A stretch of 64,000 nucleotides of DNA. It comes from Conexibacter sp. SYSU D00693 (GTDB taxonomy: Bacteria > Actinomycetota > Thermoleophilia > Solirubrobacterales > Solirubrobacteraceae). The DNA is taken from the NCBI RefSeq assembly GCF_017084525.1, contig NZ_CP070950.1:1488001-1552000 (forward strand), in the 5' to 3' direction. Within the stretch, counting starts at the first letter, position 1. Each line of letters opens with the position of its first letter. The notes under the pieces are model-generated. The model had not been told where the DNA came from, did not search any database, and saw nothing but the letters and a program-made list of their open reading frames with translations. Below are positions 1 through 25,402 of this stretch, piece after piece. A program made the translations under genes and the position numbers.

Positions 1-240
1 CTCCTCGACGACCATGACGTAGGTCGTGAGGTCGAGGCCCAGGCCGCCGTACTCCTCCGGGATCGTGATGCCGAAGAGGCCGAGCTCCTTGAGCTGCTCG
101 ACGATCGGCTCCGGGTACTCGTCCGCCTGGTCGTAGTGCTCCGCGTTGGGGATGATCTGCTCGTCCGCGAACTGGCGCACCATCTCGGTGATCGCGCGCT
201 GCTCCTCGGTCTTGTCCAGGGGGTCGATTGCGACGGCCAT
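1..240 (-). CDS. Acyl-CoA dehydrogenase, N-terminal fragment (runs off window)
   Basis: The minus strand from the ATG at 240-238 reads into the left edge without a stop, giving 80 residues. The start (MAVAIDPLDKTEEQ) and the stretch PEPIVEQLKELGLFGITIPE followed by EYGGLGLD are the hallmark N-terminal helical domain of acyl-CoA dehydrogenases, which oxidise acyl-CoA thioesters with FAD in the cytoplasm. The FAD and catalytic-base regions lie outside the window, so substrate class cannot be told. A -10 element TATCCT ends seven bases before the ATG. The divergent neighbour is an acyl-CoA ligase, which would feed it substrate. Confidence 0.9.
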   Translation of the reverse strand, partial: MAVAIDPLDKTEEQRAITEMVRQFADEQIIPNAEHYDQADEYPEPIVEQLKELGLFGITIPEEYGGLGLDLTTYVMVVEE

Positions 241-10993: not shown

Positions 10994-12331
10994 CTAGAGG
11001 ACCGGCAGGTAGCGCTCGAGCTCCCACGACGTGACCTGCACGCGGTAGTCCTCCCACTCCTGGCGCTTGATCTCGACGTAGCGGTTGAACATGTGCTCGC
11101 CGAGCGTGCGCAGGACCAGCTCGGACTCCGCGGTGAGCTCGATGGCCTCGCCGAGGGTCTCGGGCAGCTGCTCGATCCCCAGCCGGCGCCGGTCGTCCGG
11201 GGCCAGGTGGTAGAGGTTCTTCTCCATCGGCTCGGGCAGCTCGTAGCCCTTCTCGATGCCCTCCAGGCCGGCCTGCAGGAGCGCCGCGAACGTGAGGTAC
11301 GGGTTGCACGCCGGGTCCGGGCAGCGCAGCTCCATCCGCGTCGCCTGCTCCTTGCCGGGGTGGTAGAGCGGCACGCGCACGAGCGCCGAGCGGTTGCGCC
11401 GCGACCACGCGACGTACACCGGCGCCTCGTAGCCCGGCACGAGGCGCTTGTAGGAGTTCACCCACTGGGCGAAGATCGACGAGATCTCGCGGGCGTGCTT
11501 GAGCTGGCCGGCGATGAACGCCTTGCCGATGGGGCTCAGGAAGTACGGGTCGTCGGCGTCGAAGAAGGCGTTGCGGCCGTCCTTGAACAGCGACATGTGC
11601 GTGTGCATGCCGGAGCCGTTCTCGCCGAAGAGCGGCTTGGGCATGAACGTCGCGTGCCAGCCGTACTTCATCGCGTACTCCTTGACCGTGATGCGGTACG
11701 TCATGCAGTCGTCGGCCATCTTCAGGGCGGGCGCGTAGCGCATGTCGACCTCGTGCTGCGAGGGACCGACCTCGTGGTGGGAGTACTCGACGTGGATGCC
11801 GAGCTGCTCGAGCGCGATGACGGTCTCGCGGCGCACGTCGGAGCCGGCGTCGAGCGTCGTGAGGTCGAAGTAGCCGCCCTCGTCGAGCACCTCGGTGCCC
11901 TTGTTGTCCTTGAAGAGGAAGTACTCGAGCTCGGGGCCGACGTTGAACGTGTCGAACCCCATCGCCTCGGCGCGCTGCAGCGCGCGACGCAGGACGTGGC
12001 GCGGGTCGCCCTCGTAGGGCGTGCGCTCCGGGGTCTGGACGTCGCAGAACATGCGCCCGACGCCCTGGTCCTCCGGGCGCCAGGGGATCACCGCGAACGT
12101 CGACGGGTCCGGCATGGCGACCATGTCGGACTCCTCGATGGCGTTGAAGCCGGTGATCGAGGAGCCGTCGAAGCCCATGCCGCCCTCGAACGCGTCGTCG
12201 AGCTCCGACGCGTTGATCGAGAAGGACTTGAGCTGGCCGAGGATGTCGGTGAACCACAGGCGGATGAACCGGATCCCGGACTCCTCCACCATCGCCTTGA
12301 CGTCCTGCGGCGTGCGCGGCTGCTCGCTCAT
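10994..12331 (-). CDS. glnA: Glutamine synthetase, type I
   Basis: 445 residues. It makes glutamine from glutamate, ammonia and ATP as a dodecamer in the cytoplasm. The start of the catalytic barrel shows MGFDGSSITGF, metal ligands in VGPELEYFLF and SQHEVDMRYA, and the ammonia-site loop NRSALVRVP. Size and the EKNLYHLAPDDRR stretch fit the GSI-alpha group, which is regulated by feedback and protein partners; I do not see the classic adenylylation segment of the longer GSI-beta enzymes. A TAGGGT -10 ends eight bases before the ATG, so the mRNA is likely leaderless. Confidence 0.93.
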   Translation of the reverse strand: MSEQPRTPQDVKAMVEESGIRFIRLWFTDILGQLKSFSINASELDDAFEGGMGFDGSSITGFNAIEESDMVAMPDPSTFAVIPWRPEDQGVGRMFCDVQTPERTPYEGDPRHVLRRALQRAEAMGFDTFNVGPELEYFLFKDNKGTEVLDEGGYFDLTTLDAGSDVRRETVIALEQLGIHVEYSHHEVGPSQHEVDMRYAPALKMADDCMTYRITVKEYAMKYGWHATFMPKPLFGENGSGMHTHMSLFKDGRNAFFDADDPYFLSPIGKAFIAGQLKHAREISSIFAQWVNSYKRLVPGYEAPVYVAWSRRNRSALVRVPLYHPGKEQATRMELRCPDPACNPYLTFAALLQAGLEGIEKGYELPEPMEKNLYHLAPDDRRRLGIEQLPETLGEAIELTAESELVLRTLGEHMFNRYVEIKRQEWEDYRVQVTSWELERYLPVL

Positions 12332-12407: not shown

Positions 12408-12806
12408 GTGCGTCTCCGCCTCGCCACGCTCGTCGCGTGCCTGCTCGCGGCTGCGCTGGTGCAGTCGGCGAGCGCGTCGGCGACGTGGCCGCCCGCGACC
12501 GTCGGGACCGCCGGCCCGTGGATCGTCGACGGCGAGGGACGCGCGGTCGTGGTCCGCGGGCTCAACCTCGTCGACAAGCGCCCGCCCTACCTGCCCAGCG
12601 CGCGCGGGTGGCGCCCCGAGGTCGCGCGGTGGCTGCGCCGGCAGGGCTTCACCGTGGTGCGGTTGGGGTGGATCCACAAGGGCCTCGAGGCGGTGCGGGG
12701 CCGGTACGACCTCTCCTACCTCCAGCGGTTCGTCGACGACGTGCGGGTCGCGACCGACGCCGGGCTGCTCGTCCTCGTCGACCTCCACCAGGAAGCCCCA
12801 CGCTGA
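12408..12806 (+). pseudogene. Truncated GH5 glycosidase (endoglycoceramidase-like), N-terminal remnant
   Basis: 132 residues: a signal peptide, then GPWIVDGEGRAVVVRGLNLV, DKRPPYLPS, a strand VVRLGWI and VLVDLHQEAP. This is the beginning of a GH5 barrel of the endoglycoceramidase kind, where the family normally continues after HQ(D/E) for another 300 or more residues with two catalytic glutamates. Here a stop follows at once and the next bases begin another gene. No catalytic residue remains, so it cannot be an active glycosidase. The promoter and signal peptide look intact. It is either a remnant or a secreted short protein reusing the front end. Confidence 0.65.
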
Positions 12807-12841: not shown

Positions 12842-13801
12842 ATGAGGCGCTTGGTCATGGCCGCCTGCTTGGTCCTCTGCGCATGCACCGGACCGAGCGC
12901 CGCGGCAGCGACGCTGCCCGCAGAGTTCCTCGCGAGCTCCCCTGCCGCTGCCTCGCCGGAGACGGCCACCTACGCGGTGTCGGACGCCTTCGGCCGGTTG
13001 AAGCTCCTGACCCCGGGCCGCCCCGACCAGGTGCCCGACCTGCTCAACAGCCCTTGCGCACCCCAGGCCATCGCGCGTGGCGTCGTCTACGGCTGCGCCC
13101 AGGCCGACGGCACCTTCGTGGCGGTCCCCTTCCCCTCAGGGCTGCCGAGCGTCGTGCGCCCGTCGCGGATCTCGCCGGCCTCGAGCACCGAGCGGTTCGT
13201 GCCTGGCACGCGGGCGGGCACCGCGTGGCTCGGGGGCACCGTCGTGCTGCGCAGCGACCTCGGCGGCACGGAGCTGCGGGTGCCCGCGGTCGTCCGGCGC
13301 CGCGACGGCATGACCGTCGACGCCCGCGGTCTGCTGGCCGGGGACGTGCGGTCCTGGGGTCCGCGGGCCTTCCTCGACCTCTCGGCCGACGGCCTCCATG
13401 GGCGTCTGTGCTCACCGCTGCGGCGCGAGCCGCTGGTCACGGGCCCCGCGGGCGCCTACGACGACCTCGTCCGGGTCGGCCGGTGGACCATGCGCGCCGC
13501 CGGGAGCGGCACGGGCGCGGCGCGCTGGGTCGTCCAGCGCTGCGGCGCCCGCCGCCGGGCCCTGACGCTCGCTGCCGGCGCGACGCCCGTCCTCGGCGAC
13601 GGCTGGGTCGCGTGGATCGATCGCCGGCAGGTGCGTCTGCGCCGGCTCTCGACCGGGCGGACCACCAGCTGCAGGTGGTCGGGAAGCCGTCCGCGCATCG
13701 CGTTGAGCGCGAACCGGCTCATCGTCTCGCAGCCGGTGCCGGGCGGCTGGCGCGTCCGCGTCCTGCGGCTGCGCCAGGGGGCGCCCGCCGCCGGGGGCTA
13801 G
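12842..13801 (+). CDS. Secreted or lipid-anchored protein of unknown function
   Basis: 319 residues from ATG 12842 (ATG 12857 is possible). The N-terminus MRRLVMAACLVLCACTG is a signal peptide with a plausible lipobox cysteine. The body is beta-rich with repeated short strands such as YAVSDAFGRLKLLTPG, GVVYGCAQADGTFVAVPF and GDGWVAWIDRRQVRLRRLS, which is suggestive of a beta-propeller, and it has paired cysteines. No enzyme motif is seen. It follows directly after the GH5 remnant and overlaps the opposing gene by the CTAG stop tetranucleotide. Confidence 0.7.
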   Translation: MRRLVMAACLVLCACTGPSAAAATLPAEFLASSPAAASPETATYAVSDAFGRLKLLTPGRPDQVPDLLNSPCAPQAIARGVVYGCAQADGTFVAVPFPSGLPSVVRPSRISPASSTERFVPGTRAGTAWLGGTVVLRSDLGGTELRVPAVVRRRDGMTVDARGLLAGDVRSWGPRAFLDLSADGLHGRLCSPLRREPLVTGPAGAYDDLVRVGRWTMRAAGSGTGAARWVVQRCGARRRALTLAAGATPVLGDGWVAWIDRRQVRLRRLSTGRTTSCRWSGSRPRIALSANRLIVSQPVPGGWRVRVLRLRQGAPAAGG

Positions 13802-14415
13802 CTCGTCACGAAGGCGAGCAGGAGGAGCAGGACGCTCAGCGACACCATCCAGAGCATCACCCGGTCGGGCGCGCTCTCGACGCGGTCGCGGGCCGACATC
13901 GGCGCGCGGCGCGGCTCGCGGGCGGTGGCGGCCGCGGCGCGGCGCTCCTCCGGGCGGCCGGTGATGCGGATGACGCCGCCGTCGGCGCCGGGCGGCGGCG
14001 CCATGGTGTCGTCCTGCTCGAGCACGATGCGCCGCGGCGCGGGCGCCGGCTCGTCGTCGACGAAGGCCTCGGCGTCCTCGAGCGCCGTGGCGCCCGTCGG
14101 CTCGTGGTGGGTGCGCACGAAGCGGTGGCCGCGGGTGGGCGGCTCGTCCTCGTCCAGGCCGAAGTCGTCCCAGACGTCGGCGTCCTGCGCGGTGCGGCGG
14201 CGCGGCTCGGCCAGGTCCTGCTGCGCACGACGGGCGGCGCGGCGGGAGGCGAGCTCGTCAGACACCGGCGGGCGGCCGATGACGTGCGCGGGCACGAGGT
14301 CGAAGTCGTCGTCGGCCCACACGGCGACGCGGCGACGGCCGCGCGCCCCCGTGTCGAGGTCGTCGCGGTCCGACTGGACGTCAGCCCACCAGTCGTGGGC
14401 CTCCTGGAATGCCAT
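13798..14415 (-). CDS. Tail-anchored membrane protein of unknown function under a c-di-AMP riboswitch
   Basis: 205 residues, mostly hydrophilic and acidic with low complexity (WADDDFDLVPAHVIGRPPV near the start, WDDFGLDEDEPP in the middle). One hydrophobic segment lies at the extreme C-terminus (VMLWMVSLSVLLLLLAFVTS), so most of the chain should face the cytoplasm and be held by its tail. No enzyme or wall-hydrolase domain is visible. The 5' leader (14416 to about 14585) contains a strong c-di-AMP riboswitch, so expression should respond to that second messenger, which in related bacteria governs osmotic and cell-wall physiology. I do not recognise the family. Confidence 0.8.
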   Translation of the reverse strand: MAFQEAHDWWADVQSDRDDLDTGARGRRRVAVWADDDFDLVPAHVIGRPPVSDELASRRAARRAQQDLAEPRRRTAQDADVWDDFGLDEDEPPTRGHRFVRTHHEPTGATALEDAEAFVDDEPAPAPRRIVLEQDDTMAPPPGADGGVIRITGRPEERRAAAATAREPRRAPMSARDRVESAPDRVMLWMVSLSVLLLLLAFVTS

Positions 14416-14435
14416 CGTGTCTAACGGTCTCTCTG

Positions 14436-14576
14436 GTCGGCCTACGGGGTTAGCTGACGGGTTCGCGCCTGAGACTCGGCGCTACGCGGCAAGGCGATTC
14501 ACCCCAACTGGGAACGGGTCCCCCGCTCCCTGACCGACCGTCGCAGACGCCTCGGACAGGGACTCAGCGGTGATGT
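14436..14576 (-). ncRNA. c-di-AMP riboswitch (ydaO/yuaA class)
   Basis: On the minus strand the conserved blocks occur in the correct order: GCTGAGTCC (14568-14560), GGAGCGGGGGACCC (centred near 14524), TTGGGGTGAATCG (near 14506-14494), and a 3' block (14465-14440) containing CGAACCCGTCAGCTAACC then CCGTAGGCC. These match the ydaO aptamer blocks known from Thermoanaerobacter and Streptomyces. The aptamer ends about 21 bases before the ATG of the tail-anchored protein, so control of translation start or readthrough is possible. I see no U-rich terminator, which favours another expression platform. Confidence 0.92.
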
Positions 14577-14585
14577 GCGCGCAGC

Positions 14586-14613
14586 ATCGTAGCACCATGC
14601 GAAGTCCCTGCAA
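14586..14613 (-). promoter_or_regulatory. Promoter of the c-di-AMP riboswitch transcript
   Basis: TACGAT (-10, 14591-14586) and TTGCAG (-35, 14613-14608) are 16 bases apart on the minus strand. Transcription would start just ahead of the aptamer. Confidence 0.6.
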
Positions 14614-14766: not shown

Positions 14767-15258
14767 CTAGTTCGTGCGGCCCGCGACGGCGGCGACGTAG
14801 CTCGCGACGGCCTCGGCGTCCTCGCCGCTGACCAGCCCGCCGGGCATCTGGCCCTGCCCCCGCGCGCGGCCCTTCTCGATCGCGTCGAGGATGAGGGCCT
14901 TCGGCGGGCGCATCTGGTCGAGGTTCGGCCCGACCTTGCCGACGGCGTTGGAGGCCCCGAGCGTGTGGCACTGGGCGCAGCGGATCTTGAAGTCCTGCCG
15001 GCCCTCGGCCTGGGCCTTGGTGAGCTCGAGGCCGCCGGGCGCGTCCTCGGCCTTGGACTCCGAGTTGTCGACGAGGACGAGGGCGGGGACGGCGAGGCCC
15101 AGGACGAGCGTCAGGACCGTCACGCCGATCGCCGTGACCCGCCGCTCGGCGCGCGTCGGGCCGGCCGGCTTGCGGCGGCGACCGCTGCGCATCGCGACGC
15201 CCACGACGCTGAGGCCGAGGAGCACGAAGACGAGGACGAACACGATCGTCTGGAGCAC
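14767..15258 (-). CDS. Membrane-anchored c-type cytochrome
   Basis: 163 residues from GTG 15258. Two hydrophobic segments (about residues 3-22 and 42-62) precede a class I cytochrome domain with the haem-binding motif CAQCH and a likely axial methionine in GQGQMPGG. The haem faces outside the membrane and shuttles electrons in a respiratory chain. A TAGGCT hexamer (15271-15266) ends seven bases before the start. It is the obvious client of the cytochrome c maturation genes elsewhere in the window. Confidence 0.87.
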   Translation of the reverse strand: MLQTIVFVLVFVLLGLSVVGVAMRSGRRRKPAGPTRAERRVTAIGVTVLTLVLGLAVPALVLVDNSESKAEDAPGGLELTKAQAEGRQDFKIRCAQCHTLGASNAVGKVGPNLDQMRPPKALILDAIEKGRARGQGQMPGGLVSGEDAEAVASYVAAVAGRTN

Positions 15259-15332: not shown

Positions 15333-18300
15333 TCAGCGCTTGCGCCCGCCGGCGAAGGACTGCACGGGCGGCGCGACGGCCCGGAAGTCGTCGGTCCCGG
15401 TCGCGGCGAGCTCCTCGGCCGGCGCGGCCCTGGCGGCCGCCTCGCCGCGCCGGCGGTCGAGCTCCAGCGCGTCGAGGATCGAGAACGGCCGGACCTCCGG
15501 CGCGGGCCTGCCGGCGAAGGCGCCCGGCAGCGCGGTGACCGAGCCCATCCCCTCCCCGCGCGCCCCGCCGACGATGGCGAAGTTCTTCTCGGTCTCGGTC
15601 GGGCGGGCGGCGATGGTCCCCGACGCGTCGAGGCGCTCGAGCCGGCGCACGACGACGTTGATCGCCCCGCCCGCGGAGGCGTGGCGCTCGAGGACGCCGA
15701 CGGCGACGACGAGCGGCTCGGCGCGGACGACGACGCGGTCGCGCTCGTAGACCGGCGGCGGGACGACGACGTTCACCGTCCCGGTCTCGTCCTCCACGAG
15801 CAGGAAGCAGACGCCCTTGGCGGTGCCCGGCCGCTGGCGGGCGACGACGAGGCCGGGCAGCCGGACCGGCGTGCCGTGGGGCAGGCGCTCCAGGTCGCCC
15901 GCCGCGACCATGCCGCGGCTGCGCAGCTCGTCGCGCAGCAGGCCCAGCGGGTGGGCGCCGGTCGTCAGCCCGGTCGTCGCGTAGTCGGCGACCATCGCCT
16001 CCCAGCCGGCCACGGCCGGCAGGTCGGGAGCCGAGCCGGTGTCGAGCCCGAGCGCGAGCTGCGTCCCGGCCTCCTCGCGCATCCGCATCCCCGAGGTCCC
16101 CTGCCCCGCCACGAGCACCTTGCGCCCGGGGGCCGCGACGCCGAGCTCCCACAGCGCGCGCCGGCGGTCGCCGCCCACCAGGCCGTCGCAGGCGCCCGAC
16201 CACGCGAGCTGCTCGAGCGCCGCCCGGCCGGCGCCCGCGCGTGAAGCGAGCTCGGCCGGGGAGGTGAACGGGCCCGAGGCGTCGCGCTCGGCCACCAGCG
16301 CGCGGACGTCGTCCTCGCGCACCCCCAGCACGTAGCCCAGCCCGACCCGCACCGCCCCCTCCGGCGTGACCGTGCACCCGACGGCGCTCGCGTTCACGTC
16401 GGGCGGGAGGACCTCGATGCCGCGGCGCTGGGCCTCGTGGACCAGCGCGTCGGAGGGGTAGAAGCCCATCGGCTGCTCGTCGAGGAGCGCGGCCAGGAAC
16501 TCGGGCGCGTAGTGGACCCGCAGCCACGTCGACTGGTAGGCCAGCAGGCCGAACGCCGCGCCGTGGGCCTTGGGGAAGCCGAAGCCCGAGAAGCCCTTGA
16601 CCATCGTCCACACGCGCTCGGCCAGCGCCTCGTCGACGTCGTCGAAGCGCGCGCACGCCCGCTCGACGAAGCGCTGGTGGTAGGCCTCGAGCGCCTCGAT
16701 CGAGCGCTTGCGGCTCATCGCCCGGCGCAGCCCCTCCGCCTCCCCGGGCGAGAAGCCGGCGAAGGCCATCGCGGTCTCGATGACCTGGTCCTGGAAGATG
16801 ATCGTCCCGAGCGTGTCGCGCAGGACCGGCTCGAGCGACGGGTGGTCGAAGGGGACCACGTAGTCGGGGTCCTCGCGCATCCGCTGGCGGCGCTCGATGT
16901 ACGGGTTGACCGCGCCGCCGACGATCGGGCCGGGCCGGACGATCGCCACCTGGATCGTGAGGTCGTCGAGCGTCTCGGGCCGGGTGCGCCGCAGCGAGCC
17001 CATCTGCGCGCGCGACTCGATCTGGAAGACGCCGGTCGTCTCGGCGCGCTGGATCATCCCGAACGTCTCGGGGTCGTCGAAGGGGATGCGCGAGAGGTCG
17101 ATCGTCTCCTGCCGGCGTGCCGCGACCATGTCGACGCAGCGCTCGACCGCCGAGAGCATCCCGAGGCCGAGCAGGTCGATCTTCAGGAAGCCCGCGTCGG
17201 CGCAGGAGTCCTTGTCCCACATGACCATCTGCCGGCCCTCCATCGCGGCCGGCACCACGGGGCAGCAGTCGACGAGCGGGCGGGTCGCGACGATCATCCC
17301 GCCCGAGTGCTGGGAGAGGTGGCGCGGCAGGCCGTGGGCCTCATGGGCCAGGCGGTGCAGCCACGCCCAGCGGCCGTCGTCGACGCGGTCCTCGCCCAGC
17401 GCGTGGGCGATGTCCTGGTCGACGGTCTTGGCCGAGAAGGCCTCGGAGGAGCGCGCCACGCGCTCGATCTCCCCGGGCGGCAGGCCGAGCGCCTTGCCCA
17501 GCTCGCGGATCGCGCCGCGCGCGCGGAAGGTCGGGAACGCCGCGACGAGCGCCGAGCGCTCGCGCCCGTAGCGCTCGTGGACGCGTGGGATGAGGACCTC
17601 GCGCACGTCGCGCGGGAAGTCGAGGTCGATGTCCGGCAGCGCCGTGATCTCGTCGTTGAGGAAGCGCCCGAGGAAGAGGTCGTTGGCCAGCGGGTCGATG
17701 TGCGAGAGGCCGGTGAGGTAGCAGACGATCGACGAGACGCTCGAGCCGCGGCCGCGCCCCGGCGGCAGCACCGCGCGCGCCGCCGAGGGCCCGCGCACCT
17801 CGGCCGCCACCTCGCGCGCGAGCTCGAGCAGGTCGTGGTGCAGGAGGAAGAAGCCCGACAGGCCGAGGCCGCGGATGAGCGCGAGCTCCTCGTCCAGGCG
17901 CTGGACCGCGTCGGCGCGCAGCCGGTGGCCCTCGGGGTAGCGCAGGTCGAAGCGCGCGGCGCACACCTCGGAGAGCTGGCGGTCGGCCGTCGGGTCCTCG
18001 GCGCCCGGGTAGCGGTAGCCGAGGTCCTGGGTGAGGTCGAAGGAGATCTGCTCGGCGATCCGGCCCGTCTCGGCGACCGCGTCGGGGTGGTCGGCGAAGC
18101 GCGCCGCCATCGCCGCGGGCGACGCGAGCACGTGGCTGTGGTTGCCGCGGCGCAGCGGCTCGGACGCGTCGAGCGTCGTGTGCTCGCGGATGGCGACGAA
18201 CGCGTCCTGCAGCTGCGCCCGCTCGCGCGTGTGGGCGTGGACGTCGCCCGTCGCGACGCACGGCACGCCGAGCCGCTCGGCCAGCGACGCCAGCCCGCGG

Positions 18301-18917
18301 TTGAGCGCGCGGTCGCGGCGCAGGTAGGGCCGCTGGAGCTCGACCCGGAAGCCGTCGCGCCCGAACGCCCGCAGCAGCCGGCGCATCATCGGCTCGTCGC
18401 GCACGCCGCGCCTCGCGCAGCCCGAGAGGCAGATGAGCCCCTCGGCGTGCGCCTCGAGGTCGGCGAGCGTCAGCACCGGGTCGAGCACCCGCCGCGGCGG
18501 CCGGCCACGCTGGCGCGACCCGCCCGGCCGGAACCCGCCGCCGTGGCGGCGCACGATGGCCTCGACCTCCGGCGACGCGCCGTCGGGCAGGTCCCCGCGC
18601 GTGTGCGCGTGGGCGCGCGTGAGCAGCAGGCAGAGGTTGCGCCACCCCCGCGCGTCGCGCACCAGCAGCGTGAGGTGCCGCGTCGCGTCGCCTCCACCCG
18701 CCGGGTCGACGACGTCGACCTCCGCCCCGTGGATCGCCTTGAGCCCCAGCGCGCCGGCCGACTGCGCGAACTCCATCGAGCCCGAGACCGTGTTGTGGTC
18801 GACGAGCCCGAGCGCCCGGTGTCCCCGCTCGAGCGCCGCCGCCACGAGCTCCTCGGGCAGCGACGCGCCGTCCAGGAAGGAGAAGGCGGAGTGCGCGTGG
18901 AGCTCGACGTACGACAC
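15333..18917 (-). CDS. dnaE2: Error-prone DNA polymerase III alpha subunit DnaE2
   Basis: 1194 residues from GTG 18917. The PHP domain opens with ELHAHSAFSFLDGAS. The polymerase palm shows PDIDLDFP with catalytic aspartates, and helix-hairpin-helix and OB-fold regions follow (PVRLPGLVVARQRPGTAKG). DnaE2 copies past DNA lesions and causes induced mutation together with ImuB. A LexA box, CGAACATGCGTTCG, ends exactly on the first base of the GTG, so transcription is surely SOS-controlled. The open frame extends further upstream to 19118, but that would place the LexA box inside the coding sequence and adds proline-rich sequence unlike the family. The C-terminus ends near FAGGRKR. Confidence 0.92.
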   Translation of the reverse strand: MSYVELHAHSAFSFLDGASLPEELVAAALERGHRALGLVDHNTVSGSMEFAQSAGALGLKAIHGAEVDVVDPAGGGDATRHLTLLVRDARGWRNLCLLLTRAHAHTRGDLPDGASPEVEAIVRRHGGGFRPGGSRQRGRPPRRVLDPVLTLADLEAHAEGLICLSGCARRGVRDEPMMRRLLRAFGRDGFRVELQRPYLRRDRALNRGLASLAERLGVPCVATGDVHAHTRERAQLQDAFVAIREHTTLDASEPLRRGNHSHVLASPAAMAARFADHPDAVAETGRIAEQISFDLTQDLGYRYPGAEDPTADRQLSEVCAARFDLRYPEGHRLRADAVQRLDEELALIRGLGLSGFFLLHHDLLELAREVAAEVRGPSAARAVLPPGRGRGSSVSSIVCYLTGLSHIDPLANDLFLGRFLNDEITALPDIDLDFPRDVREVLIPRVHERYGRERSALVAAFPTFRARGAIRELGKALGLPPGEIERVARSSEAFSAKTVDQDIAHALGEDRVDDGRWAWLHRLAHEAHGLPRHLSQHSGGMIVATRPLVDCCPVVPAAMEGRQMVMWDKDSCADAGFLKIDLLGLGMLSAVERCVDMVAARRQETIDLSRIPFDDPETFGMIQRAETTGVFQIESRAQMGSLRRTRPETLDDLTIQVAIVRPGPIVGGAVNPYIERRQRMREDPDYVVPFDHPSLEPVLRDTLGTIIFQDQVIETAMAFAGFSPGEAEGLRRAMSRKRSIEALEAYHQRFVERACARFDDVDEALAERVWTMVKGFSGFGFPKAHGAAFGLLAYQSTWLRVHYAPEFLAALLDEQPMGFYPSDALVHEAQRRGIEVLPPDVNASAVGCTVTPEGAVRVGLGYVLGVREDDVRALVAERDASGPFTSPAELASRAGAGRAALEQLAWSGACDGLVGGDRRRALWELGVAAPGRKVLVAGQGTSGMRMREEAGTQLALGLDTGSAPDLPAVAGWEAMVADYATTGLTTGAHPLGLLRDELRSRGMVAAGDLERLPHGTPVRLPGLVVARQRPGTAKGVCFLLVEDETGTVNVVVPPPVYERDRVVVRAEPLVVAVGVLERHASAGGAINVVVRRLERLDASGTIAARPTETEKNFAIVGGARGEGMGSVTALPGAFAGRPAPEVRPFSILDALELDRRRGEAAARAAPAEELAATGTDDFRAVAPPVQSFAGGRKR

Positions 18918-18930
18918 GAACGCATGTTCG
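18917..18930 (-). promoter_or_regulatory. LexA box of dnaE2
   Basis: CGAAC-ATGC-GTTCG read on the minus strand, the Gram-positive SOS operator pattern. Its last base is the first base of the dnaE2 start codon, so bound LexA would cover both the initiation region and the first codon. Confidence 0.88.
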
Positions 18931-19151
18931 CATCCGGGGCGGACGGCTTCAGCCCGGCGCCCCAGAGGCGGTTCGGGACCGAAGGACGTTGGCGGATGGG
19001 TCGGACGGAAACGGTTCGGGGGTTGGTCCTGCGGTCGAAGCGGCAACTGCTCGGCCCTGGCCCGTGCACGTGCCGCCGCGTCGTCGAGCGGGGACTTGGA
19101 GTCGCCAGGCGAGCTCAAGTCGCCGGTCGACGCAGCGAGCAGAGCTCGTCC
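18931..19151. other. Intergenic stretch between dnaE2 and the pilin-like gene
   Basis: 221 bases with no supported gene. Around 19006-19023 it holds the motif GGACGGAAACGGTTCGGGGG, which recurs with one base fewer near 22166 in front of imuB. Confidence 0.5.
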
Positions 19152-20517: not shown

Positions 20518-20784
20518 TCAGCGCTGGCGGTACCAACCCGCGCGCCGGCCGAGCCGCCCGTCCTCGAGCTCGCGGAAGACGACGACGCACTGGCCCGAGG
20601 TCGTGACGACCTCCCAGTAGCGACGGCGCAACGGCTCGGGCGTCCACCAGCGGTCCTCGACGAGCCAGGTCTCGCGGACGGCGTCGACCGCCCGGCCGTC
20701 GACCGACAGCGGCGTCCCGCGGGCGTCGGCGCGGACGACCGCGGGCAGCGGGAGGCCCAGGCGCTTCGGGCCGCTCGTCGTCAT
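20518..20784 (-). CDS. Small ImuB-associated protein (DUF6504-like)
   Basis: 88 residues. The ATG overlaps the imuB stop (ATGA), so it is translationally coupled to imuB. The sequence ETWLVEDRWWTPEPLRRRYWEVVT then VVVFRELEDGRLGRRAGWYRQ resembles the short proteins (DUF6504 type) that sit next to Y-family polymerases in actinobacteria. Their role is unknown; coupling suggests a part in damage-induced synthesis. The family assignment is from memory of the pattern and should be treated as tentative. Confidence 0.65.
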   Translation of the reverse strand: MTTSGPKRLGLPLPAVVRADARGTPLSVDGRAVDAVRETWLVEDRWWTPEPLRRRYWEVVTTSGQCVVVFRELEDGRLGRRAGWYRQR

Positions 20785-22010
20785 TCGAACGGCGTGAGGA
20801 CGGCGCGGCGCTCGGGCACGCGCGAGTCCGGGTCGACCTCGAGGACCCGCAGCGCCGCGTCCGGCCCCGCCGCCGCGCGGGCCTGGCGGACGGCCTCCTG
20901 CAGGCGCGCGCGGCGCTGGGCGGTCCCGTCGTCGAACAGCGCGCGGGCACCCGCGTGCGGCGGGCCGAAGCGCTCGACGGCGAGGCGCAGCGCCTCGGCG
21001 GGCGCCGGGAGGTGGATGAGCCGCTGGCCGAGGGCCAAGCGCATCCGGCCCGCGTCGGCCAGCGCCTCGCGGAAGACGACGCGCTCGCGCCACGTCCCGC
21101 CCTCGACGAGCCGCGCCGACAGGACGACGGCGCGCAGCGTCCGGCCGTCGCGCTCGCGCCGCGCGAGCAGCTTGTCGACGAGCAGGCCCAGCGCGCGACC
21201 GAGCTGCTCGCCCGAGGCGGACTCCGGCAGCTCGAGCGTCTCCTCGAGCGTCTCGCCGGGCTTGCGCGGACGCAGCGGCGCGTCCTTGCCGCGCGCGAGG
21301 TCGTGCGCGAGCAGCCCGAGCGCGCCGAAGCGGTCGGCGACCTTGCCGCGCGGGAGCTTCGCCAGCGCGCCGAGCGTCGGGATGCCCAGGCGCTCGAGCG
21401 GCTCGACGAGCGACGCGGTGTCCTCGCGCCGGCGCAGCAGCGCGACCGGCTCGGCCGCCAGGGCCGCGGCGCCGTCCACGACCTCCGCGCGCCGCGTGCG
21501 CGCGCGGGAGGCACCCGCGAGCGCGCAGAAGCGCGACGGCCCCGCGCCGATGCGCGACGGGACCTCGAGGGCGCGACGGGTGACGGTGACCAGCGGGTCC
21601 AGCCACGGCGGCGGCGCGCCGTGACGGGCCCGCAGCGCGGCGGCCGGGTCGTCCCCGCGCGCACCCCCGTGCAGCCGGCGCAGCGCGTGGCCGTCGAAGA
21701 ACGCGAGGCCGGCGCGTGGCGCCTCGACCTCCGCGCCGATCGACTCGAGGCGCTGCAGGACCTGCTCCCACGCGTCGGCGACGCCCACCGGGTCGGGCGG
21801 GACGAGGGCGAGCGTGGGGCAGCGCGCGAGCGCCTCGCCGAGCCGCAGCCCCGGGTGCACGCCGCACGCCTCGGCGGCCTGCGAGACCTCGCCGATGAGC
21901 TGATCGCGCCCCGGCTCGGGCGCCAGGGCCATGGGTCCGCGCGCCAGCGCCTCGCGACCGCCGGCGGCGACGGCGAGCTCGAAGCGGGGAAGCAGGACGC
22001 AGAGGATCAC
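20781..22010 (-). CDS. imuB: ImuB, Y-family DNA polymerase-like mutasome subunit
   Basis: 409 residues from GTG 22010. The N-terminus (VILCVLLPRFELAVAA) is the Y-family opening strand but lacks the catalytic aspartate seen in active DinB enzymes, as is typical of ImuB. GIPTLGALAKLPRGKVADRFG is the helix-hairpin-helix of the palm/thumb boundary, and the little-finger domain follows. ImuB serves as a hub joining DnaE2 to the beta clamp. A LexA box lies about 50 bases upstream. The usual partner ImuA is not present next to it. The frame extends upstream to 22403, but through the operator, so the GTG is preferred. Confidence 0.87.
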   Translation of the reverse strand: MILCVLLPRFELAVAAGGREALARGPMALAPEPGRDQLIGEVSQAAEACGVHPGLRLGEALARCPTLALVPPDPVGVADAWEQVLQRLESIGAEVEAPRAGLAFFDGHALRRLHGGARGDDPAAALRARHGAPPPWLDPLVTVTRRALEVPSRIGAGPSRFCALAGASRARTRRAEVVDGAAALAAEPVALLRRREDTASLVEPLERLGIPTLGALAKLPRGKVADRFGALGLLAHDLARGKDAPLRPRKPGETLEETLELPESASGEQLGRALGLLVDKLLARRERDGRTLRAVVLSARLVEGGTWRERVVFREALADAGRMRLALGQRLIHLPAPAEALRLAVERFGPPHAGARALFDDGTAQRRARLQEAVRQARAAAGPDAALRVLEVDPDSRVPERRAVLTPFE

Positions 22011-22060
22011 GGCGGTGGTGCGGCGACGACGAGGGCGTGGTTCCCGAGCGTCTGACGATG

Positions 22061-22074
22061 CGAACGTGTGTTCG
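22061..22074 (-). promoter_or_regulatory. LexA box of imuB
   Basis: CGAACGTGTGTTCG: perfect CGAAC-N4-GTTCG, 50 bases upstream of the imuB GTG, in the divergent region shared with the penicillin-acylase gene. Confidence 0.87.
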
Positions 22075-22236
22075 TCTCGTGGCAGACGATGGTGCCATGC
22101 GACCCGGCGGACGCGCAAGACCGCCGACACGCCTGCCACCACATCGCCCACGGTGGCGCACCCACCGGACGGAACCGTTCGGGGATTGACTGAACGGCGC
22201 CGTGCAGGAACGGCGCGGTGGTCCGCCCGCTGGCGG

Positions 22237-22242
22237 TAGCGT
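22237..22242 (+). promoter_or_regulatory. -10 element of the penicillin-acylase family gene
   Basis: TAGCGT, six bases before GTG 22249. Confidence 0.55.
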
Positions 22243-22248
22243 CCGACC

Positions 22249-24624
22249 GTGATCTGGAGGAGGGTCGTTGGGGTCGCCGCGCTGGTCGCGGCAGGGACTG
22301 GGCTGGCGGCCCCGGGGGCGCAGGCGGGCGTCACGCGCGCCGAAGGCGTCCTGCCGCCGGGCCAGAGCGGCTTCGTCTCGGTGCCCGGGATCCTGCAGGG
22401 CACCGGCTCGCCGCACCTCTACGACCAGTCACCGCTCTTCTCGAGCTTCAAGCGCAAGCCGCTGACCTTCACGACCGCCGACCGCGTCGCCGGCGAGCGC
22501 GAGCGCCCGATCCCCGGCGTGCAGATCGTCCGCGACGCCTACGGCGTCCCGTCGGTGACCGGCCAGAGCGACTACGACCTGTGGTGGGGCGCCGGCTACG
22601 CGGTCGCGCAGGACCGCCTCTTCCAGCTCGAGGCGTTCCGTCGTGCGACGCAGGGCCGGTTGGCGACGATCCAGGGCAAGAGCGTCCTCGAGGACGACCT
22701 CGTCGCCCGCCGCGACTACTACACGGGGCCGGAGCTCGACGCCATGGCCGCGCGGCTGCCGGTCGAGCTCCAGCGCCGCGCCGAGGCCTACCGCGACGGC
22801 ATCAACGCCTGGCTGGCCCGCGCGCGGCTGGACCTCACCCGGCTGCCGGGCGAGTTCGCGGTCCTGGCGGCGCTGCCGATCCCGGACTGGACGCTGCGCG
22901 ACACGTGGGCCGTCGGCGTCTTCCTCGCCCGCACCGTCCCCAGCGGCGACGGCAACGAGCTCAACAACCTCCGTGCGGTGCAGCAGGGTGGCCGCAAGGT
23001 CCTCGAGGAGCTCCTGCCGCTGCACATCAAGGGCCAGCGCTCGACGATCCCCGCCGGCGAGGGCCGCTTCCCGCAGGGCAAGGCGCCCACCGCGCGCCAG
23101 GAGCGCCGGGCGCTCAACCGCTCGCTCGAGTTCGTCAAGACGCTCCCGACGCCGTCCTCCGGCCAGGCCGCCGCGGCGCGCCGCAAGGCCGACCTCGCCC
23201 CCGGGCGCCTGGGGCGCGTCGGTGGCTCGTCGATGTTCGCCGTCGGCGATCGCAAGAAGAAGCGCGCGTGGCTGTTCAACGGCCCGCAGCTCGGCTTCTC
23301 GTCCCCCGAGCTGTTCGTCGAGCTCGAGCTCCACGGCCCCGGCACGGACGTCCGCGGCGTCACCGCCCCCGGCGTGCCGATCCTCGCCATCGGCCACAAC
23401 GAGCACGTCGCCTGGGGCTACACGAGCGGCCTGAGCGACGAGGACGACCTCTACGCCGAGAAGCTCGTGCCGGGCCAGCCCGAGAAGTACGTCTTCCAGG
23501 GCCAGGAGCGCCAGATGGAGTGCCGCAACGAGACGTTCCAGTACACGACCACGCCGGCCGCCCTCCTGCTCGACGGCGCGGCGCCGGAGTTCGGCTCGAA
23601 GACCGAGCGCATCTGCCGCACCGTCCACGGCCCGGTCCAGGTCCGCGACGGCGGCGTCGCCTACGCGCGGCGCTACGCGATCTGGGGCCGCGAGCTCGAC
23701 ACCTTCCCCGGCCTCTCCGCGCTGGCGACCGCGCGCAGCGTGCAGGACGTCGACAAGGCGATGCGCACCGTGACCTGGAACGAGAACCTCATGGCCGCCG
23801 ACGACCAGGGCAACATCGGCTACTGGCATCCCGGCCTCTTCCAGCAGCGCCCGCCGGGCTGGGACCAGCGCCTGCCGATGCCCGGCACCGGCGAGGCCGA
23901 GTGGCCCGGGTTCGTCGACCGGTCCAAGCTCCCCGCGGTGATCAACCCGCGCCAGGGCTGGCTCGCGAACTGGAACAACATCCCGTCGCAGGGCTGGACG
24001 ACCGGCGACGGCGAGGCGACCGAGCGCGTCACCGGTCCGCTGCATCGCGTCGGGATCCTGCAGAAGACGGTGGCGCGGATGGCGAAGAACCCGTCGTTCG
24101 AGGCGGCCGAGGCGGTCATCCGCCGCGCCGGCGCCAGCGCCCAGCAGCGCACGCTGCTCGGGCCGCAGCTGCGGCGCATCGCGAAGAAGGCCCGCGGCGG
24201 CGCGGCGACCGTCCTGGGGACGATCCTCGCCTGGGACGGCGACTACCACCGCACCGACGAGGCCGGGAAGGTCGACGCGGGCGTCGCCGCCTGGAAGGCG
24301 TTCCGCGACGCCGCGATGGACGCGGCGCTCGCGCCCTTCGGCCCGGCCGGCCGGAAGTTCGGGACGACGACGAGCTCGTCGCACGTCTACGACTTCTCCA
24401 ACGGCATGGCCTACGCGTTCCGGACGCTGGACGACCGCCAGCTCCGGCTCGCCGCAGCCGCCGCGCTCGGCCGTCTCGAGGACAAGTTTGGGACGACCGA
24501 CCCGGCCGGCTGGCGCGAGCCGCGGACGATGTACGACGTGGGCACGCAGGGCGCCGCGCAGCCGGACGACCTGCCGTTCTTCGACCGCGGGACGTGGGAG
24601 CAGATCGTGGAGCTGGGCGGGTAG
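22249..24624 (+). CDS. Secreted penicillin acylase family Ntn-hydrolase
   Basis: 791 residues from GTG 22249 with a signal peptide ending APGAQA. This family folds as a single chain that cuts itself into alpha and beta subunits, freeing an N-terminal serine nucleophile. Here the cleavage region is RVGGSSMFAVG near residue 327. The alpha part shows IPGVQIVRDAYGVP, then GAGYAVAQDRLFQLEAFRR. The beta part shows GVPILAIGHNEHVAWGYT and TWNENLMAADDQGNIGYW. It hydrolyses amide bonds of acylated amines, for example acyl-homoserine lactones or beta-lactams; the real substrate is unknown. Divergent from the SOS-regulated imuB. Confidence 0.87.
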   Translation: MIWRRVVGVAALVAAGTGLAAPGAQAGVTRAEGVLPPGQSGFVSVPGILQGTGSPHLYDQSPLFSSFKRKPLTFTTADRVAGERERPIPGVQIVRDAYGVPSVTGQSDYDLWWGAGYAVAQDRLFQLEAFRRATQGRLATIQGKSVLEDDLVARRDYYTGPELDAMAARLPVELQRRAEAYRDGINAWLARARLDLTRLPGEFAVLAALPIPDWTLRDTWAVGVFLARTVPSGDGNELNNLRAVQQGGRKVLEELLPLHIKGQRSTIPAGEGRFPQGKAPTARQERRALNRSLEFVKTLPTPSSGQAAAARRKADLAPGRLGRVGGSSMFAVGDRKKKRAWLFNGPQLGFSSPELFVELELHGPGTDVRGVTAPGVPILAIGHNEHVAWGYTSGLSDEDDLYAEKLVPGQPEKYVFQGQERQMECRNETFQYTTTPAALLLDGAAPEFGSKTERICRTVHGPVQVRDGGVAYARRYAIWGRELDTFPGLSALATARSVQDVDKAMRTVTWNENLMAADDQGNIGYWHPGLFQQRPPGWDQRLPMPGTGEAEWPGFVDRSKLPAVINPRQGWLANWNNIPSQGWTTGDGEATERVTGPLHRVGILQKTVARMAKNPSFEAAEAVIRRAGASAQQRTLLGPQLRRIAKKARGGAATVLGTILAWDGDYHRTDEAGKVDAGVAAWKAFRDAAMDAALAPFGPAGRKFGTTTSSSHVYDFSNGMAYAFRTLDDRQLRLAAAAALGRLEDKFGTTDPAGWREPRTMYDVGTQGAAQPDDLPFFDRGTWEQIVELGG

Positions 24625-25066: not shown

Positions 25067-25070
25067 CCGT

Positions 25071-25402
25071 AGCACGCCTGTAAGCCGGATCCTGTCGTGG
25101 ACGACCATCCATCTGCGCGACCTACCTGGACCTCGGCGGGCAGCCTGCGAACGGTCCTGCTCGGTCTTGCACCGGGTGGGGTTTGCCTGGCCGCCATGTC
25201 GCCATGACGCCGGTGCGCTCTTACCGCACCGTTTCACCCTTGCCTGTGCGGGACTCACGTGTGGCCCCGCCATCGGCGGTCTGCTCTCTGTGGCACTTTC
25301 CCGCGGCTTTCACCGGGTCGGCTTGCGCCGACCACCCTGCCCTGCGGTGTCCGGACTTTCCTCGACGGGTTGTCTCTCCCGCCGCGGCCGTCCAGCGTGC
25401 GG
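25071..25402 (-). ncRNA. rnpB: RNase P RNA (bacterial type A)
   Basis: The minus strand carries the 5' core GAGGAAAGTCCGG, the middle signatures ACAGAGAGCAGACC and AGGGTGAAACGGTGCGGTAA, and the 3' end ATCCGGCTTACAGGCGTGC. GCACGC near the 5' end pairs with GCGTGC at the 3' end to close helix P1. Length is about 330 bases. As the catalytic RNA of RNase P it trims pre-tRNA 5' ends. The ends are accurate to a few bases. Confidence 0.95.

What the first reader, a model, noticed from the sequence alone, without database searches (positions are those of the whole stretch)
13798..14613. c-di-AMP riboswitch controlling an unrecognised tail-anchored protein
All conserved blocks of the ydaO aptamer are present with a good promoter, but the downstream gene is not a potassium transporter, osmolyte carrier, or Rpf/NlpC-type wall enzyme, the usual targets. 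It encodes an acidic low-complexity protein held by a C-terminal span. This may be a new effector of c-di-AMP physiology, for instance a scaffold or transporter regulator.
Basis: partly seen in the sequence, partly recalled or inferred. Interest (0 to 1): 0.75.

Follow-up and report, generated by a model that had tools for sequence, protein, structure and literature searches.

The report
Riboswitch-controlled tail-anchored cell-wall partner protein
A real c-di-AMP sensor RNA controls a small membrane-tethered protein that is conserved across one order of soil actinobacteria, sits in a set of genes otherwise made up of cell-wall-cutting enzymes, and is itself joined to such an enzyme in some relatives, so it is probably a wall-remodelling helper.

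Summary
A c-di-AMP (ydaO, RF00379) aptamer lies at 14579-14424 on the minus strand (72.3 bits, cut-off 38). Eight bases downstream starts a 205-aa ORF ending in a membrane span. Linkage is conserved: a profile of the ORF's C-terminal part finds it in 87 of 151 genomes of the order (Solirubrobacterales), nearly always once, and 67 of 88 places have an aptamer directly upstream. Gene order cytochrome c - aptamer - ORF - glnA is conserved, and dN/dS is mostly 0.1-0.4, so it is a real, selected protein without a Pfam or NCBIfam family. All six other aptamers of this genome precede secreted wall enzymes (NlpC/P60 types, M23, Rpf-type, RlpA), and orthologues in several lineages carry peptidoglycan-binding plus RlpA domains after the same span. 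So it is the enzyme-less member of a wall-hydrolase regulon rather than an effector outside wall biology. 'Acidic' is peculiar to a few copies; most relatives are basic. Control is probably translational: the aptamer's loop-tail pseudoknot pairs with the ribosome-binding site, with covariation (0 of 2000 shuffles). The biochemical role is inferred: a membrane-tethered partner or anchor of wall hydrolases.

The parts
14586..14613 (-). promoter-like site: TTGCAG (14613-14608), 16-nt spacer, extended -10 TGCTACGAT (TACGAT at 14591-14586)
   Evidence: Sequence; a GNTANNNT element near this distance from the aptamer is found in 78 of 95 loci against 7.8 in shuffles. TTG-(16..19)-TAnnnT as a whole is not conserved (5 of 95).
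14424..14579 (-). c-di-AMP (ydaO) riboswitch aptamer, RF00379
   Evidence: cmscan 72.3 bits, E 7.9e-15, full length.
14424..14482 (-). expression platform: last aptamer hairpin (GCGCC GAGUCUCA GGCGC) and the 3' tail AGAGAGAC, which holds the ribosome-binding site; loop GUCUC pairs with tail GAGAC
   Evidence: Loop-tail pairing covaries among 24 variant loops: mean Watson-Crick run 5.29 against 3.91 when partners are shuffled, 0 of 2000 as high. The same loop-tail complement is present in the crystallised ydaO RNA whose sequence is printed in PMC5393176.
13798..14415 (-). tail-anchored protein ORF, 205 aa (short N-terminal helix with WWADVQ; mostly disordered middle; IRITGRP motif; PDRVMLW + membrane span at the C-terminus)
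   Evidence: family alignments A1 and A3; AlphaFold helices 2-21 and 183-204, rest mostly low confidence; dN/dS of relatives.
14767..15258 (-). upstream neighbour, cytochrome c (conserved synteny)
   Evidence: Cytochrome_CBB3; found upstream of the aptamer in 48 of 68 loci.
10994..12331 (-). downstream neighbour, glutamine synthetase glnA (conserved synteny)
   Evidence: Gln-synt_C; found downstream in 51 of 68 loci although flanks were short.
12842..13801 (+). convergent lipoprotein-like ORF between the gene and glnA, its stop overlapping the gene's stop by 4 bases (CTAG); not part of the conserved locus
   Evidence: No tblastn match in any other family locus.

Best explanation
The locus is a c-di-AMP-controlled gene of the cell-wall-hydrolase regulon of Solirubrobacterales. 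Its product is a single-span, C-terminally anchored membrane protein with a mostly disordered cytoplasmic part and no enzyme domain. Steps supported by sequence: aptamer; start codon next to the aptamer; loop-tail pseudoknot that covers the ribosome-binding site; orthology across the order by synteny; purifying selection; orthologues fused to PGB-RlpA or Rpf-like ectodomains. Inferred: at high c-di-AMP the pseudoknot hides the ribosome-binding site and translation stops; at low c-di-AMP the protein is made together with the wall hydrolases. It then acts at the membrane as the anchor or docking partner of those hydrolases (RlpA type most likely), in trans where it stands alone and in cis where it is fused.
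For: Aptamer 72.3 bits. ORF family in 87 of 151 genomes of the order, almost always single copy; of 299 genomes of the class, all 56 matches lie in this order. RF00379 at or above the curated score directly upstream in 67 of 88 places, start codon -5 to +15 nt from the aptamer end in 55 of 56 automatically parsed loci. Synteny cytochrome c - aptamer - gene - glnA. Own regulon: PGBx2 + NlpC-like, NlpC-like, M23, PGB + Transglycosylas (Rpf type), PGB + NLPC_P60, DPBB. Fused orthologues: PG_binding_1 + DPBB_1. The fused RlpA domains fall in more than one place of the RlpA tree (4 label changes, at least 2 forced), so the join arose more than once, and G003's domain groups with other riboswitch-controlled RlpAs: repeated fusion suggests a functional link. 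dN/dS mostly 0.1-0.4 in enzyme-less pairs, and mostly 0.04-0.23 in the last 60 columns of pairs outside the window's genus. Pseudoknot covariation. Translational control and wall targets of c-di-AMP riboswitches are known in Corynebacterium and Streptomyces (PMC9960051; PMC10117811).
Against: No biochemical or localisation data. The partner is inferred only from fusion and co-regulation. Most of the cytoplasmic part is poorly conserved, and its charge flips between relatives. About a quarter of the matched places lack an aptamer, most even with a permissive search, although several of those are chance or contig-end hits. The window's loop-tail pairing is only 5 bp, and the ribosome-binding site lies about 13 nt from the ATG. 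The membrane segment of the window copy is more diverged than in siblings (PDRVMLWMVSLSV against PDRIALWAVALGA).
Confidence: 0.55

Rival explanations
1. The gene is a decayed wall enzyme: the n-region and signal/anchor sequence of an RlpA protein left behind after loss of its ectodomain, with little or no function of its own.
For: Orthologues in g13, f3 and G003 carry PGB + RlpA right after the same span; many enzyme-less copies end close to an A-x-A-like signal-peptidase site (e.g. ...AAGTAHA...ATASA); in the window an unrelated convergent ORF abuts the stop codon.
Against: Enzyme-less copies prevail in the order and keep the RRTVxIxGR and RPDRxAxWA motifs; dN/dS is mostly well below 1; the RlpA tree puts G003's domain among separate riboswitch-controlled RlpAs, so that fusion looks gained and not ancestral; anchor length is uniform (22-31 residues from PDR to the end in 37 of 46).
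Confidence: 0.2
2. The protein modulates secretion or processing: the C-terminal segment is an uncleaved or just-cleaved signal sequence that titrates Sec or signal peptidase when the hydrolases are being exported.
For: The span is homologous to the signal/anchor of exported RlpA fusions and often ends at or near A-x-A; it is co-regulated with exported enzymes.
Against: No direct evidence; Ala-rich termini are common in such high-GC genomes; some copies end in TGS, TGT or IAH; siblings of the window carry about 30 extra residues after the span.
Confidence: 0.1
3. New c-di-AMP effector outside wall biology (scaffold, transporter regulator).
For: No known domain; disordered cytoplasmic part and tail anchor.
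Against: Every other aptamer-controlled gene of the genome is a wall enzyme; fusion partners are wall enzymes; neighbours glnA and cytochrome c are not transporters.
Confidence: 0.12

Closest known systems
c-di-AMP (ydaO/yuaA) riboswitch, RF00379
   Same: Full-length aptamer, all conserved blocks, loop-tail pseudoknot as in the crystallised ydaO RNA.
   Different: No terminator found; the start codon adjoins the aptamer, so control is probably at translation, as proposed for C. glutamicum nlpC (PMC9960051).
Actinobacterial c-di-AMP wall-hydrolase regulon (Streptomyces rpfA and other hydrolases; C. glutamicum nlpC and rpf1)
   Same: All six other aptamers of this genome precede secreted wall enzymes.
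   Different: The window gene has no enzyme domain; it is a conserved tail-anchored protein.
RlpA / DPBB_1 lytic transglycosylases with PG_binding_1
   Same: Orthologues of the window gene in several lineages carry PGB + DPBB after the same span.
   Different: The window protein has neither domain; the fused domain seems to have been joined more than once.
Membrane co-factors of wall hydrolases (SweC/SweD of FtsEX-CwlO in Bacillus, named in PMC6705773)
   Same: Works-like comparison only: non-enzymatic membrane proteins needed by a hydrolase.
   Different: No relationship was tested; a lead from the title and abstract.

Membership tests
RF00379 c-di-AMP riboswitch | Covariance-model score at or above gathering (38 bits) | tested here: met
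   72.3 bits, full length
RF00379 c-di-AMP riboswitch | Loop-tail pseudoknot | tested here: met
   GUCUC/GAGAC in the window; covariation in relatives; weaker here (5 bp) than in most (7-8 bp)
RF00379 c-di-AMP riboswitch | Binds c-di-AMP | not testable with these tools
   Needs in-line probing; the genome encodes one diadenylate cyclase
c-di-AMP wall-hydrolase regulon | Aptamer-controlled gene encodes a wall enzyme | tested here: not met
   Window protein: no Pfam or NCBIfam domain; met by the six other genes and by fused orthologues
RlpA / DPBB_1 | DPBB domain | tested here: not met
   Absent in the window protein; the only DPBB protein of the genome is at C1:836138-836383, itself behind an aptamer (34.5 bits, below the cut-off)
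Tail-anchored membrane protein | Single C-terminal span with a very short exterior tail and no signal peptide before it | tested here: met
   Span at residues 183-204 of 205; uniform 22-31 residues from PDR to the end in most relatives
Tail-anchored membrane protein | Inserted in the membrane with the N-terminus inside | not testable with these tools
   Positive residues before the span suggest N-in; needs localisation

The most novel reading that the evidence does not exclude
A new, order-wide protein family: a tail-anchored, mostly disordered adaptor, translated only when c-di-AMP is low, that holds or licenses wall hydrolases at the membrane and has been fused to RlpA- or Rpf-type enzymes several times in evolution. 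It would link the turgor signal to where wall cutting happens, not only to how much enzyme is made.
Probability: 0.35. Interest if true: 0.72.

Novelty: new variant of a known kind. Interest (0 to 1): 0.52.

Why it matters
In Actinobacteria c-di-AMP riboswitches are known to act on wall hydrolases, but targets other than the enzymes themselves are hardly known. A conserved, non-enzymatic membrane protein in this regulon, with natural fusions to RlpA, gives a concrete candidate for the missing spatial control of wall hydrolases. It comes from an order in which I found no c-di-AMP study (searched by the name Solirubrobacter). It also adds comparative support for translational control by ydaO aptamers, so far reported for one gene (PMC9960051).

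Tried and rejected
Relatives through genome contigs with the single protein: none by tblastn; a closer alignment gave one named locus, JACRMD010000124.1, Solirubrobacterales MAG. First pass on downstream genes without strand correction gave false ORFs, repeated correctly. A split gene (enzyme in a separate ORF just downstream) was looked for with wall-enzyme motifs in all frames and not found at the enzyme-less loci. A first covariation test that allowed G-U and stem bases was weak for variant loops (48 of 1000 shuffles); the restricted loop test was clear. Weak aptamers at 20 aptamer-less loci: none up to E 0.5. Terminator: none found. RNA energy folding gave no excess stability (z -0.98), not informative for a pseudoknotted, GC-rich RNA. 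PDB sequence search: no meaningful relative. Plasmids: no match. A few profile hits (e.g. L138, an MFS transporter, and L141) were judged chance.

Full report
Observation. cmscan finds a c-di-AMP (ydaO/yuaA) aptamer at 14579-14424 on the minus strand with 72.3 bits against a gathering score of 38. The ORF 14415-13798 (-) starts 8 nt after the aptamer model ends. It encodes 205 aa, with codon-position GC 0.81/0.53/0.97, and one hydrophobic span at the very C-terminus. No Pfam or NCBIfam family matches. The genome has seven RF00379 matches, six above the cut-off, and one diadenylate cyclase. An extended -10 (TGCTACGAT, TACGAT at 14591-14586) precedes the aptamer; an element of that type lies 10-16 nt upstream in most of 95 aptamers of the order (78 of 95 have one, shuffles 7.8).

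Linkage in relatives. The ORF alone finds weak matches in the genus, each just behind an aptamer. A profile of the conserved C-terminal part (RRTVxIxGRP ... RPDRIAxWAVxLGxxLIL) matches 87 of 151 genomes of the order, nearly always once per genome. In 299 genomes of the class all 56 matches lie in the same order, which is Solirubrobacterales by the one named record. RF00379 is at or above the curated score directly upstream in 67 of 88 matched places. In 55 of the 56 loci parsed automatically the start codon lies -5 to +15 nt from the aptamer end. The neighbourhood is the same throughout: a cytochrome c gene upstream (48 of 68 loci) and glnA downstream (51 of 68, limited by short flanks). In the window both are present, but two plus-strand ORFs (a GH5-like fragment 12408-12806 and a lipoprotein-like ORF 12842-13801) sit between the gene and glnA; the second has no match in the other loci, and its stop codon overlaps that of the gene. 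Siblings G001, G002 and G006 have about 30 residues beyond the span; the window copy ends at the span.

Selection. Pairwise dN/dS of enzyme-less members is mostly 0.1-0.4. It is lower still, mostly 0.04-0.23, in the last 60 alignment columns of pairs outside the window's genus (0.43-0.64 within the genus, where those columns include the variable tail). So these are maintained proteins. The low-complexity part is not conserved in charge: pI 4.9 here, above 10 in 37 of 46 relatives. AlphaFold on a two-sequence alignment gives helix 2-21 (the WWADVQ region, pLDDT 80-85), a mostly low-confidence middle and helix 183-204 at pLDDT 94-96. With so shallow an alignment this supports only the anchor and, loosely, disorder.

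What the regulon is. With strands set right, the six other aptamers of the genome precede a PGBx2 + NlpC-like protein, an NlpC-like protein (Pfam score below the cut-off, but with YDCSG and NPGHAY motifs), an M23 peptidase, PGB + Rpf-type transglycosylase, PGB + NlpC/P60, and an RlpA/DPBB protein. The last is the only DPBB protein of the genome. Most DPBB genes among the relatives also lie behind an aptamer-like motif. The window gene is thus the one non-enzyme of a wall-hydrolase regulon.

Fused orthologues. At the same syntenic locus, G003 (same genus), g13 genomes of the same family and several f3 genomes encode the same membrane part, with longer or shorter N-terminal parts, followed by PG_binding_1 and DPBB; one (L136) carries an Rpf-like domain with a sub-threshold Transglycosylas match. 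G018 has all elements in one chain: WW motif, RRTVRIEGR, span, PGB, RlpA. On the RlpA-domain tree the fused domains do not form one group: four label changes, at least two forced by well-supported branches, and G003's domain lies with separate riboswitch-controlled RlpAs of other genera at 99/83. So the join arose more than once, and in G003 it looks like a gain. Fusion by exchange between riboswitch loci is plausible but not shown. MAG misassembly could explain G003 alone, not the g13 and f3 sets.

Control mechanism. The loop of the last aptamer hairpin (CUCUUUC in most) is complementary to the 3' tail (GAAAGAG) that serves as ribosome-binding site. Variants change together: CUCGUUC/GAACGAG, CUCCUU/AAGGAG, CUCUUUUG/CAAAAGAG, and GUCUC/GAGAC in the window. 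Among 24 variant loops the mean Watson-Crick run is 5.29 against 3.91 for shuffled partners, 0 of 2000 as high. The ydaO RNA printed in PMC5393176 has the same loop-tail complement and is described with a pseudoknot, so the pseudoknot is not new; its use to cover the ribosome-binding site is the inference. It agrees with the translational control and the CTCC-GGAG pseudoknot proposed for C. glutamicum nlpC (PMC9960051). No terminator was found, and little room exists between aptamer and start codon. Rho-dependent or other transcriptional effects, as reported for Streptomyces rpfA (PMC10117811), are not excluded.

Function. The best-supported reading is a membrane-tethered, non-enzymatic partner of wall hydrolases, made when c-di-AMP is low. 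Aptamer, linkage, selection, fusion and regulon content are shown; ligand binding, direction of control, topology and the partner role are inferred.

Novelty. The riboswitch and the wall regulon are known kinds. The order-wide enzyme-less tail-anchored family, with repeated enzyme fusion, I did not find described in the searched libraries or open literature; most subscription papers were not searchable.

Noticed in passing
window 12408-12806 (+): 132-aa ORF resembling the N-terminal part of a GH5 cellulase-like enzyme, ending abruptly (PF00150 E 2e-4, below the cut-off); probably a truncated gene.
   Followed up: partly
window 15333-19118 (-) and 20781-22403 (-): ORFs that read like an error-prone DNA polymerase III alpha subunit (DnaE2 type) and an ImuB-like Y-family protein: a likely mutasome cassette close to the locus. 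Read by eye, not tested.
   Followed up: no
G000:C1:836854-837057 (-), locus L007: Aptamer of 34.5 bits, below the Rfam cut-off, directly before the genome's only DPBB/RlpA gene; the Rfam threshold misses a likely real member.
   Followed up: partly
L080, L100, L118, L127, L130, L134-L136, L139: In families f2 and f3 the RNase P RNA gene lies within about 1 kb of this riboswitch locus, while in the window rnpB is about 10 kb away (25068-25400).
   Followed up: partly
L091, L095, L097 (family f4): c-di-AMP aptamers 215-263 nt long, so with a large insertion compared with the usual 130-160 nt.
   Followed up: no
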